From the NCBI RefSeq assembly GCF_000813965.1, contig NZ_JWLI01000012.1, positions 62,001 to 126,000 of the forward strand: 64,000 bases of DNA. The letters run 5' to 3'. Of the stretch, positions 49,507-52,502 are shown piece after piece (positions within the stretch are counted from its first letter, which is position 1; each line of letters starts with the position of its first letter). The notes under the pieces were generated by a model. It ran no database searches. It was not told the origin of the DNA and saw only the letters and a list, made by a program, of their open reading frames with translations. Source of the DNA: Leisingera sp. ANG-M7 (GTDB lineage Bacteria > Pseudomonadota > Alphaproteobacteria > Rhodobacterales > Rhodobacteraceae). Both the position numbers and the translations under genes were made by a program.

Positions 49507-49582
49507 TGGTGAGCCGTGCAGGATTCGAACCTGCGACCCACTGATTAAAAGTCAGTTGCTCTACCAACTGAGCTAACGGCCC
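49507..49582 (-). tRNA. tRNA-Lys (anticodon TTT), CCA encoded
   Basis: A 76-base tRNA on the minus strand. The acceptor strands GGGCCGT and ACGGCTC pair with one G-U, and an encoded ACCA follows. The D arm TAGCTCAGTTGGTAGAGCA, anticodon loop CTTTTAA (anticodon TTT) and T arm GGTTCGAATCC are standard. Confidence 0.98.
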
Positions 49583-49769: not shown

Positions 49770-50612
49770 ATGCCCGCCATGAGCACCTCGGCAGACATAA
49801 AAATCCACTTCATGAAGATGCACGGGCTGGGCAACGACTTCGTCGTTGTCGACGCGCGCGTGCAGGACATTGCCATCACCCCGGCGATGGCCAAGGGAAT
49901 CGCGCACCGCCAGTTCGGCGTCGGCTTCGACCAGCTGACGGTGATTTCAAACGGGCCCGGCGACGCGCATCTGACCTTCTACAACGCCGACGGCTCCACC
50001 TCCGCGGCCTGCGGCAACGCCACCCGCTGCATTGCCCGCCACCTGATCCAGGAAACCGGCAAGCCGGAGCTGCACCTGACCACCGACCGCGGCGACCTTT
50101 ACGCCCGCGATGCCGGTAACGGCCTTACCTCCGTCAACATGGGCGCGCCGCAGCTGGACTGGCAGGACATCCCGCTGGCCGAGGAAACCGATACGCTGGA
50201 GCTGCCGATCGAAGGCGGCCCTACAGCCACCGGCATGGGTAACCCCCATTGCACCTTCTTTGTCGAGGACGCCGAGGTCATCCCTCTAGCAGAGTTCGGT
50301 CCCCGCTACGAACACCACCCGCTCTACCCGCAGCGCACCAATGTGCAGGTTGCCCAGGTGACCGGCCCCGACCGCATCCGCATGCGCGTCTGGGAGCGCG
50401 GTGTGGGTGTGACACTGGCCTCAGGCTCCTCCTCCTGCGCAACGGCCGTTGCGGCCGCCCGGCGCGGCCTGACGGGCCGCAAGGTGCAGATCGACCTGGA
50501 CGGTGGCACCCTGTGGATTGACTGGGCCGAGGACGGCGTCTGGATGACCGGCCCGACCATGCATGTCTTCGACGGCAGCTTCACCCGCGAATTCCTGGAG
50601 TCGCTGGCATGA
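49770..50612 (+). CDS. dapF: Diaminopimelate epimerase homologue with a catalytic Cys-to-Ser change
   Basis: A 280-residue DapF-like protein, expected to turn LL- into meso-diaminopimelate for lysine and peptidoglycan. The fold markers are intact: KMHGLGNDFVVVDA, GVGFDQL, and the first catalytic cysteine Cys81 in NADGSTSAACGNATRC. The second half-site, usually GETxACGSGAC, reads GVTLASGSSSC: Ser218 replaces the second catalytic Cys and Val214 replaces a conserved Glu. A plain reading predicts poor racemase activity unless a neighbouring residue compensates. The start is ATG 49770 or 49779; neither has a clear ribosome site. It overlaps mtaB by four bases. Confidence 0.88.
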   Translation: MPAMSTSADIKIHFMKMHGLGNDFVVVDARVQDIAITPAMAKGIAHRQFGVGFDQLTVISNGPGDAHLTFYNADGSTSAACGNATRCIARHLIQETGKPELHLTTDRGDLYARDAGNGLTSVNMGAPQLDWQDIPLAEETDTLELPIEGGPTATGMGNPHCTFFVEDAEVIPLAEFGPRYEHHPLYPQRTNVQVAQVTGPDRIRMRVWERGVGVTLASGSSSCATAVAAARRGLTGRKVQIDLDGGTLWIDWAEDGVWMTGPTMHVFDGSFTREFLESLA

Positions 50613-51871
50613 GCGTGCCCAAGTTCACGACCCTCGGCTGCCGTCTGAACGCCTATGAGACCGAGGCGATGAAGGAGCTGAGCCAGCAGGCAGGCCTGGA
50701 GAACGCCGTGGTGGTGAATACCTGTGCGGTAACTGCCGAGGCCGTGCGCAAGGCGCGCCAGGAGATCCGCCGCCTGCGCCGCGATAATCCCGAGGCGCCG
50801 ATTATCGTGACCGGCTGCGCGGCTCAGACAGAACCGGAAACCTTTGCCGCTATGGAAGAGGTCACCCGCGTCATCGGCAATACAGAGAAGATGCAGCCCG
50901 AGACCTGGCAGCAGATCGCCAGGGGCCCGGATTTTATCGGCACCACCGAGAAGGTCCAAGTCGACGACATCATGTCGGTGACAGAAACCGCAGGCCACCT
51001 GATCGACGGCTTCGGCACCCGCAGCCGCGCCTATGTGCAGGTCCAGAACGGCTGCGACCACCGCTGCACCTTCTGCATCATCCCTTACGGTCGCGGCAAC
51101 TCCCGCTCGGTCCCCGCGGGCGTGGTGATCGACCAGATCAAGCGGCTGGTGGACAGGGGCTATAACGAGGTGGTTCTGACCGGTGTGGACCTGACCTCCT
51201 GGGGCGCCGATCTGCCCGCACAGCCCCGCCTGGGTGATCTGGTGATGCGGATCCTGAAGCTGGTCCCGGACCTGCCGCGGCTGCGCATCTCCTCGATCGA
51301 TTCGATCGAGGCGGACGAGAACCTGATGCAGGCGATTGCCACCGAACCGCGCCTGATGCCGCATCTGCACCTGTCGCTGCAGCATGGCGACGACCTGATC
51401 CTGAAACGTATGGCCCGCCGCCACCTGCGCGACGACGCCATCGCGTTTTGCGAGGAGGCCCGCCGCCTGCGCCCGGAAATGACCTTTGGCGCTGACATCA
51501 TTGCAGGCTTCCCGACCGAGTCTGATGCGCATTTCGAGAACTCGCTGAAACTGGTCACTGACTGCGACCTGACCTGGCTGCACGTCTTCCCCTACTCCAA
51601 GCGTGAGGGCACCCCGGCGGCGAAGATCCCGAACCAGGTAAACGGCAATGTGATCAGGGAGCGCGCGGCCCGCCTGCGCGCGGCCGGCGATGCGCAGGTC
51701 GAACGCCACCTGGCGGCGCAGGTTGGCAAGACCCACCGCATCCTGATGGAAAACCCGCATATGGGCCGCACCGAGCAGTTCACGGAAGTGGCGTTCGCAG
51801 CCCCCCAGGAAGAAGGCCGGATCGTCACCGCCGCCATTACAGGTGTGGCAGGCAGCCAGCTGGTGGCCTGA
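50609..51871 (+). CDS. mtaB: tRNA t6A37 methylthiotransferase MtaB
   Basis: A 420-residue radical-SAM enzyme that adds a methylthio group to t6A37 in tRNAs reading ANN codons. The N-terminal cluster-binding cysteines are in TTLGCRLNAYE, NTCAVTAEA and VTGCAAQ; the radical SAM CxxxCxxC is in NGCDHRCTFCIIPYGRG. A TRAM-like tail follows from about residue 360. The LGCRLNAYE opening separates MtaB from MiaB (LGCQMN) and RimO. It overlaps dapF by four bases, so the two are co-transcribed. Confidence 0.95.
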   Translation: MSVPKFTTLGCRLNAYETEAMKELSQQAGLENAVVVNTCAVTAEAVRKARQEIRRLRRDNPEAPIIVTGCAAQTEPETFAAMEEVTRVIGNTEKMQPETWQQIARGPDFIGTTEKVQVDDIMSVTETAGHLIDGFGTRSRAYVQVQNGCDHRCTFCIIPYGRGNSRSVPAGVVIDQIKRLVDRGYNEVVLTGVDLTSWGADLPAQPRLGDLVMRILKLVPDLPRLRISSIDSIEADENLMQAIATEPRLMPHLHLSLQHGDDLILKRMARRHLRDDAIAFCEEARRLRPEMTFGADIIAGFPTESDAHFENSLKLVTDCDLTWLHVFPYSKREGTPAAKIPNQVNGNVIRERAARLRAAGDAQVERHLAAQVGKTHRILMENPHMGRTEQFTEVAFAAPQEEGRIVTAAITGVAGSQLVA

Positions 51872-52064: not shown

Positions 52065-52502
52065 ATGCAGACCAACTCTGCCCTTCCTTCTGTTGCGCAG
52101 CTCAAGGCCGAGGCCCGGCTCTTGCGCAAGCATTCCCAGGCCCAGGGCCAGCCCATCCCCCACAGCACTGCCCTGGAGCGGATTGCGCAGTACTACGGTT
52201 TCCGCGACTGGAACACGCTCCACGCCCGTGCTTCCAACGCGCCGGAACTGCAGGTGGGCATGCGGGTCGAGGGGCGCTATCTGGGCCAGCCCTTCACCGG
52301 GTATGTCCATGGGCTGGCCGCCTGCGGTGGCAATGGCCACCGGCGGATCACCCTGCAATTCGACGCGCCCGTGGACGTGGTCCAGTTCGACAGCTTCTCT
52401 TCCTGGCGCCAGCGGGTGTCCGCGGTGATCAATGCCGACGACCGCTCGCCGCAGAAGACCTCCAACGGCCTTCCGCATCTGACCGTAAGCCCGCTGGCCT
52501 AG
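52065..52502 (+). CDS. Glyoxalase-superfamily-like small protein
   Basis: A 145-residue protein. Its N-terminal half (VAQLKAEARLLRKHSQAQG then HSTALERIAQYYGFRDWNTLHA) matches a short helical module that databases attach to glyoxalase-superfamily proteins; the rest is predicted beta-rich and not clearly assignable. No metal motif is visible. It stands alone, 193 bases after mtaB in a region that shows no other gene. AAAGG lies eight bases before the ATG. Confidence 0.6.
   Translation: MQTNSALPSVAQLKAEARLLRKHSQAQGQPIPHSTALERIAQYYGFRDWNTLHARASNAPELQVGMRVEGRYLGQPFTGYVHGLAACGGNGHRRITLQFDAPVDVVQFDSFSSWRQRVSAVINADDRSPQKTSNGLPHLTVSPLA

What the first reader, a model, noticed from the sequence alone, without database searches (positions are those of the whole stretch)
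50396..50440. DapF homologue has Ser in place of the second catalytic cysteine
Diaminopimelate epimerases use two cysteines, one each side of the substrate (Cys73 and Cys217 in E. coli). Here the first is kept (Cys81, ACGN) but the second half-site reads ASGSSSC instead of ACGSGAC, so Ser218 (codon TCA at 50421-50423) stands where the second Cys should be, and Val214 replaces a conserved Glu. The Cys at 223 matches the non-catalytic Cys of the E. coli motif. Either Rhodobacterales DapF works with Ser, a second epimerase exists, or the protein has another job.
Basis: partly seen in the sequence, partly recalled or inferred. Interest (0 to 1): 0.6.

Follow-up and report, generated by a model that had tools for sequence, protein, structure and literature searches.

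The report
Marine DapF with natural catalytic Cys-to-Ser swap
An essential cell-wall and lysine enzyme in a large group of marine bacteria carries, in nature, the kind of active-site change that nearly kills related enzymes in the laboratory, and it appears to have adjusted its surroundings so that it still works.

Summary
Window ORF 49770-50612 is DapF; Ser218 (TCA, 50421-50423) aligns with catalytic Cys217 of E. coli, Cys81 with Cys73. Ser is written with six codons, so selection holds the residue. The known DAP-binding residues are kept, mtaB follows both Ser and Cys forms, dapF is single-copy here, no DAP dehydrogenase or DapL passes its cut-off, and lysA and a DNPR-type murE are present. 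So the Ser form most likely makes the cell's meso-DAP. Five other positions change with it. Best reading: a working one-thiol epimerase in which Cys81 takes the proton from L,L-DAP and Ser218, in a remodelled half-site, gives one back. Cys-to-Ser mutants of relatives are nearly dead, so this natural variant deserves an assay; none was made here.

The parts
49770..50612 (+). dapF, diaminopimelate epimerase orthologue with a Cys/Ser catalytic pair (280 aa; the start could also be the ATG at 49779)
   Evidence: TIGR00652 237.1 bits, cut-off 114.65; PF01678, two stretches; AlphaFold2 model mean pLDDT 95.6; best PDB fold matches are DapFs
50010..50012 (+). codon of Cys81, the kept first catalytic Cys (E. 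coli Cys73)
   Evidence: alignment; Cys in 317 of 317 family loci read
50421..50423 (+). codon TCA of Ser218 in place of the second catalytic Cys (E. coli Cys217)
50430..50435 (+). codons of Ser221 and Ser222 (E. coli Gly220, Ala221), which differ between Ser and Cys forms; the backbone NH of position 220 lies at the catalytic sulfur in Anabaena DapF (its Gly227)
   Evidence: column comparison; PMC12039745 section 6, part 1
50229..50231 (+). codon of Thr154 (E. coli Val153), linked to Ser218
50253..50255 (+). codon of Thr162 (E. coli Val161), linked to Ser218
50346..50348 (+). codon of Gln193 (E. coli position 192; Glu in 68 of 70 Cys forms); among Ser forms Gln is found only where position 220 is Ser
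50609..51871 (+). mtaB, tRNA methylthiotransferase; its start overlaps the dapF stop (ATGA); downstream neighbour of Ser-type and Cys-type dapF alike
   Evidence: TIGR01579 442 bits, cut-off 357.05; found downstream in 107 of 107 Ser-type, 29 of 30 Cys-type and 25 of 30 outside loci that had at least 500 bases to search

Best explanation
This is the cell's only recognisable diaminopimelate epimerase, a dapF orthologue that still converts L,L-DAP to meso-DAP but with a Cys/Ser instead of a Cys/Cys catalytic pair. Shown by sequence: the substitution, its fixation in a large subgroup, its retention by selection, the unchanged DAP-binding residues, the shared locus, the lack of a known bypass over cut-off, and linked changes at five other positions of the C-terminal half-site. 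Inferred: that it is active; that Cys81, as thiolate, removes the alpha proton of L,L-DAP; and that the hydroxyl of Ser218 at the start of helix 4 gives a proton to the other face of the carbanion, with Ser221 and the Thr154/Thr162/Gln193 set adjusting hydrogen bonds or a proton relay around it. The forward reaction needs Ser only as an acid, which a hydroxyl can do more easily than it can act as the base for the back reaction; LysA and MurE pull meso-DAP away, so a slow back reaction would cost little. Loss of the second thiol would also remove the catalytic disulfide by which other DapFs are inactivated on oxidation, a possible advantage in aerobic marine life.
For: Ser at the site in 167 of 237 unnamed-genome loci and 80 of 80 nearest named loci of the family, Cys in the other 70; six Ser codons in use. 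N11, Q44, N64, C73, G74, N75, N157, N190, E208, R209, G218 invariant in 318 of 318 rows, position 219 Ser in 317 and Thr in 1. Single dapF, no bypass over cut-off. meso-DAP is needed: lysA 480.1 bits over 297.9, murE 429.8 bits over 257.3 with the motif DNPR (that the motif marks meso-DAP addition is recalled). Same downstream gene beside Ser and Cys forms. Linked positions (E. coli numbering): in 247 Ser loci 220 is Ser 234, Cys 9, Gly 4, and Gln192 occurs in all 234 with Ser220 and in none of the other 13; in 70 Cys loci 220 is always Gly and 192 Glu in 68. Fold is DapF. Precedents: a 4-hydroxyproline epimerase with a Ser93/Cys255 pair is reported active (PMC4113996, passages); EcL-DER with one catalytic Cys replaced by Thr is reported to convert L-Asp to D-Asp irreversibly (PMC8142540, section 7 read). 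L,L-aziDAP bonds to the first Cys and D,L-aziDAP to the second (PMC12039745, section 6 part 1 read), which fits the first Cys facing the L,L substrate.
Against: No activity was measured here or found in the papers searched. In relatives, Cys-to-Ser mutants are almost dead: PddB below 0.1 per cent, said there to be like Mt-DapF (PMC8225329, passages); HisR C67S and C209S greatly reduced (PMC11602996, passages). C83A and C221A of C. glutamicum DapF (Ala, not Ser) are almost inactive (PMC5296763, passages). The linked sites change on few branches, so their statistical independence is weak. I had no coordinates of the model, so no distance between Ser218, Ser221, Thr154, Thr162 and Gln193 was measured. 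The absence of a bypass rests on cut-offs; related aminotransferases below the DapL cut-off exist. The redox advantage is conjecture, and Ser forms do not have fewer other cysteines (mean 4.50 against 4.39 besides the site).
Confidence: 0.75

Rival explanations
1. The Ser-type DapF is a weak or dead epimerase, and meso-DAP comes from another, unrecognised enzyme (a promiscuous racemase or aminotransferase, or an unknown epimerase family).
For: Cys-to-Ser mutants of relatives keep below 0.1 per cent activity or are greatly reduced. An unknown family would escape profile searches; 11 of 100 family genomes have a DapL-related aminotransferase at 417-434 bits, below the 593-bit cut-off (E. coli and B. 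subtilis also have sub-cut-off matches in that control).
Against: The DAP-binding residues are kept in the 318 rows compared and would decay in a dead enzyme; the window's own genome has no such aminotransferase (best 206 bits); DapL and DAP-DH do not pass cut-offs in any of 100 sampled family genomes.
Confidence: 0.1
2. The protein works on another substrate or does another reaction (racemase of another amino acid, or a dehydratase).
For: A Cys-to-Thr change is reported to turn trans-3-hydroxyproline epimerase into a dehydratase (PMC8142540, section 7). F. nucleatum HisR was predicted to be DapF before it was tested (PMC11602996, passages).
Against: Residues for the distal amino and carboxylate groups of DAP (N64, N157, N190, E208, R209) are invariant in 318 of 318 rows; single-copy gene in a genome that has lysA and a DNPR-type murE.
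Confidence: 0.05
3. The catalytic acid/base is not Ser218 but a moved residue, such as the one at position 220 (Ser221 here, Cys in 9 loci), or a water held by the remodelled half-site; Ser218 is only a helix cap.
For: Position 220, whose backbone NH lies at the catalytic sulfur in Anabaena DapF, is Gly in 70 of 70 Cys forms but Ser or Cys in 243 of 247 Ser forms.
Against: Four Ser-type loci keep Gly220, so a side chain there is not always needed; Ser218 itself does not vary within the group, which is defined by it, in spite of codon drift.
Confidence: 0.1

Closest known systems
Canonical DapF (E. coli, H. influenzae, Anabaena; TIGR00652 / PF01678)
   Same: Profile score over cut-off, fold, first catalytic Cys, DAP-binding residues, downstream gene shared with Cys-type relatives
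   Different: Second catalytic Cys is Ser; Gly220, Ala221, Val153, Val161 and Glu192 changed with it
C217S laboratory mutant of DAP epimerase (PDB 2q9j; H. influenzae, species recalled)
   Same: Same residue at the same site; matched by sequence and fold
   Different: Man-made in a Cys/Cys background without the linked changes; only the entry title was seen, its activity was not read
Ser-Cys 4-hydroxyproline epimerase B9K4G4 (PMC4113996; probably PDB 4lb0, linked by organism only)
   Same: Related fold with one catalytic Cys replaced by Ser and reported active
   Different: Proline racemase superfamily; Ser stands on the other side of the pair; other substrate
EcL-DER aspartate/glutamate racemase
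   Same: One catalytic Cys replaced by a hydroxyl residue (Thr); reported one-way conversion (PMC8142540, section 7)
   Different: Different fold and family (recalled), Thr not Ser
C. glutamicum DapF redox switch
   Same: Same family; its two catalytic Cys form a reversible disulfide, with loss of activity on oxidation (PMC5296763, abstract and passages)
   Different: The Ser form cannot make that disulfide

Membership tests
DapF, as orthologous family (TIGR00652) | Score over the curated equivalog cut-off along the whole profile | tested here: met
   237.1 bits, cut-off 114.65, positions 1-268 of 270
DapF, as orthologous family (TIGR00652) | Two-domain DapF fold | tested here: met
   Model pLDDT 95.6; the first 17 PDB matches are DapFs, query TM-score 0.81-0.88
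DapF, as orthologous family (TIGR00652) | DAP-binding residues N11, Q44, N64, N75, N157, N190, E208, R209 | tested here: met
   Kept in the window protein and in 318 of 318 rows
DapF, as orthologous family (TIGR00652) | Gene neighbourhood shared with Cys-type dapF | tested here: met
   mtaB downstream in 107/107 Ser, 29/30 Cys, 25/30 outside loci with enough flank
DapF, as Cys/Cys two-thiol epimerase | First catalytic Cys in C-G-N | tested here: met
   Cys81; 317 of 317 loci read
DapF, as Cys/Cys two-thiol epimerase | Second catalytic Cys in C-G-S/T-G | tested here: not met
   Ser218. It is therefore filed as a dapF orthologue that departs from the two-thiol mechanism, not as a Cys/Cys epimerase
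DapF, as Cys/Cys two-thiol epimerase | L,L-DAP to meso-DAP epimerase activity | not testable with these tools
   Needs an assay
NF038284 bifunctional DapF/glutamate racemase | Score over the curated cut-off | tested here: not met
   82.7 bits, cut-off 350

The most novel reading that the evidence does not exclude
A single-thiol diaminopimelate epimerase arose in the ancestor of a large marine subgroup of Rhodobacterales. It has a rebuilt half-site in which Ser218 (with Ser221) replaces the second thiol, runs mainly in the L,L-to-meso direction, and is immune to the catalytic disulfide that inactivates other DapFs.
Probability: 0.4. Interest if true: 0.78.

Novelty: new variant of a known kind. 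Interest (0 to 1): 0.62.

Why it matters
DapF is a model for how a thiol/thiolate pair moves a proton of pKa near 29, and an antibiotic target whose aziridine inhibitors bond to the two Cys. A large natural group that does without the second thiol, with a set of linked changes and possible intermediates (Ser with Gly220, Ser with Cys220, Ser with Ser220), makes a question directly testable: what has to change around a catalytic Cys before Ser can replace it. It also predicts different inhibitor and redox sensitivity, and warns that a 'catalytic Cys missing' rule would call these genes dead.

Tried and rejected
Sequencing error or frame problem: rejected, because relatives share the Ser with six codons. 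Another Cys taking the place through misalignment: rejected; the block aligns without gaps in the printed alignments and Cys223 matches E. coli Cys222. A second dapF, DapL or DAP dehydrogenase in the window's genome: none over cut-off. Number of origins: left open. FastTree on 368 rows with the seven trait columns removed needs at least 3 changes; a quick IQ-TREE of 80 chosen rows needs 3 and a careful one 2 (its bootstrap had not settled). An AU test does not reject the Ser rows as one clade (p 0.797, and the tree that holds them together scored 38.7 log units better than the quick free tree); the second test in that call did not finish and was not run again. Trees of the two domains apart suggested that four Cys-type genes (L277, L281, L023, L274) are mosaics, but in the careful tree they fall with other Cys rows, so I do not claim it. 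A general loss of cysteines in the Ser group: not seen. A plasmid search gave 119 records, all below 60 per cent identity, and was not used further. No structure coordinates were on hand, so geometry was not measured. The second structure job, the other fold libraries and one genome search were left unused.

The loci read were the better scorers of two searches, so middle scorers are under-sampled. The 50 outside loci are the 30 best scorers plus 20 that I chose from the listed ones, of 348 genomes with a match, so odd low-scoring genes could have been missed. Rows dropped before counting: L326, L329, L330 (repeats of genes already read), L001 and L002 (pieces of the window gene) and L033-L040 (aminotransferases). 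Counts of 248 or 318 hold the window protein twice (P0001 and L121).

Full report
What is there. The window ORF 49770-50612 (+) codes for a 280-residue protein that scores 237.1 bits with TIGR00652 DapF, cut-off 114.65, and matches PF01678 in two stretches. Against solved DapF sequences the block RMRVWERGVGVTLASGSSSCA lines up without gaps with ...YERGAGETQACGSGACA of E. coli and with the Acinetobacter, Pseudomonas and Anabaena enzymes (names). Ser218 (TCA, 50421-50423) stands where the second catalytic Cys is; Cys81 is the first; Cys223 is the non-catalytic Cys222 of E. coli. Its side remark is not: 'Val214 for a conserved Glu' concerns E. coli Glu213, which only 2 of 50 DapFs read from other alphaproteobacterial families have; the substrate-binding Glu208 of WERG is intact in 318 of 318 rows.

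How common it is. The nearest named relative is a Leisingera strain (98 per cent; the tool warns that records of the window's own genome may be left out); NCBI puts that genus in Roseobacteraceae. In 295 genomes of the same family, 280 have a DapF profile match and 281 match the protein. I read 237 of these genes, from 236 genus codes: 167 Ser, 70 Cys, nothing else; the first Cys is present in all 317 family loci read. All 80 nearest named loci have Ser; they include Leisingera, Ruegeria, Sulfitobacter, Roseovarius, Shimia, Sedimentitalea, Phaeobacter, Thalassovita and Salipiger. In 50 genes read from other families of the class, all Cys. The Ser is written TCG 88, TCC 71, TCT 65, TCA 21, AGT 1, AGC 1: the codon drifts, the residue does not.

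Why it most likely works. The genome (99.89 per cent complete) has one dapF. DAP dehydrogenase and DapL do not pass cut-offs in it, nor in any of 100 sampled family genomes; below the cut-offs, 11 of the 100 have an aminotransferase at 417-434 bits with the DapL model (cut-off 593; E. coli and B. subtilis show sub-cut-off matches too) and 16 have DAP-DH hits of 20-27 bits (cut-off 180.6). It has lysA, 480.1 bits over a cut-off of 297.9, and murE over its cut-off with DNPR, the motif that I recall as marking meso-DAP addition. The residues listed for DAP binding are kept in all Ser rows. dapF is followed by mtaB in 107 of 107 Ser-type, 29 of 30 Cys-type and 25 of 30 outside loci with enough flank, so Ser and Cys forms sit in the same place. 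In Phaeobacter inhibens (a Phaeobacter locus, L059, is Ser-type here) the argD gene proposed for an earlier step of the pathway is essential, and the species grows without added amino acids (PMC5764234, passages); dapF of that species was not mentioned in the passages I saw.

What changed with it. Comparing 248 Ser rows (window protein counted twice) with 70 Cys rows, the positions that differ most after the site itself are, in E. coli numbering, 220 (Gly to Ser, sometimes Cys), 161 and 153 (Val to Thr), 221 (Ala to Ser) and 192 (Glu to Gln). In the 247 Ser loci Gln192 is present in all 234 with Ser220 and in none of the 13 with Cys220 or Gly220. All lie in the C-terminal half-site: 220 is the residue whose backbone NH lies at the catalytic sulfur in Anabaena DapF (its Gly227; PMC12039745 section 6); 153 and 161 flank the loop of Asn157 and 192 follows Asn190 in the sequence. 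Four loci with Ser217 and Gly220 and nine with Cys220 look like intermediates. The linked residues are not exclusive to Ser forms: three of the 50 outside Cys genes have Thr at both 153 and 161 (L367, L377, L380). Because the trait changes on few branches, this is a linked set and not many independent events.

Origin. With the seven trait columns removed, the fewest changes of Cys/Ser are 3 on a FastTree of 368 rows, 3 on a quick IQ-TREE of 80 rows and 2 on a careful one, where 25 per cent of 200 bootstrap trees have the Ser rows as one side of a branch. The AU test does not reject one Ser clade (p 0.797). One origin, one origin with a return to Cys, or two origins all fit.

Mechanism. In Anabaena DapF, L,L-aziDAP bonds to the first Cys and D,L-aziDAP to the second, so for L,L-DAP the first Cys is the natural base and the second residue the acid. 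I infer that Cys81 deprotonates L,L-DAP and Ser218 reprotonates the other face. The back reaction would need a Ser alkoxide or a relay and should be slow; the equilibrium is not altered. EcL-DER, with Thr for one Cys, is reported as one-way (PMC8142540 section 7), and a 4-hydroxyproline epimerase with a Ser/Cys pair is reported active (PMC4113996, passages). Against this stands the laboratory record: Cys-to-Ser mutants of PddB keep below 0.1 per cent (PMC8225329, passages) and those of HisR are greatly reduced (PMC11602996, passages); such mutations in DapF are said to hinder catalysis and aid crystallization (PMC12039745, passages), and a C217S DAP epimerase is in the PDB (2q9j, title). The difference, if the reading holds, lies in the linked changes. 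A possible benefit is loss of the catalytic disulfide that forms when C. glutamicum DapF is oxidised (PMC5296763, abstract and passages); that is conjecture.

Novelty. Searches of the held open-access library showed no title or abstract start about a Ser form of DapF among the rows listed; several lists were cut (20 of 24, 20 of 63, 10 of 1,634, 12 of 14), and subscription papers are not held, so this is no proof that it is unreported. I class it as a new variant of a known kind. Verdict: confirmed, fixed in a lineage, most likely a working Cys/Ser epimerase, and a good target for a short bench study.

Noticed in passing
49507-49582 (-): A tRNA-Lys (anticodon ttt) lies just upstream of dapF, a lysine pathway gene, on the other strand; conservation of this arrangement was not checked.
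   Followed up: no
L223, L224, L241, L250, L251, L269, L321, L327, L328: Nine Ser-type DapFs have Cys at position 220, three residues after the replaced catalytic Cys, so a thiol returns close to the site.
   Followed up: partly
L321 and L322: Two Ser-type DapFs have also lost the non-catalytic Cys222 (Ser there).
   Followed up: no
family alignment, E. coli position 268: The residue aligned with E. coli Tyr268, which was mutated in PDB 4ik0, is Phe in most rows but Ala in 28 and Cys in 7 Ser-type rows.
   Followed up: no
family genomes G064, G069, G114, G136: 15 of 295 family genomes give no DapF match; most are incomplete, but these four are rated 97 per cent complete or more and might lack dapF or have it broken by contig ends.
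   Followed up: no
family genomes G007, G028, G070, G160, G256: Five rows, by my reading of the table, show two DapF matches in one genome; whether these are second copies or split genes was not looked at.
   Followed up: no
52065-52502 (+): An ORF of 145 aa between mtaB and the genes on the other strand that follow (52655 on); not searched, so it may or may not be a gene.
   Followed up: no
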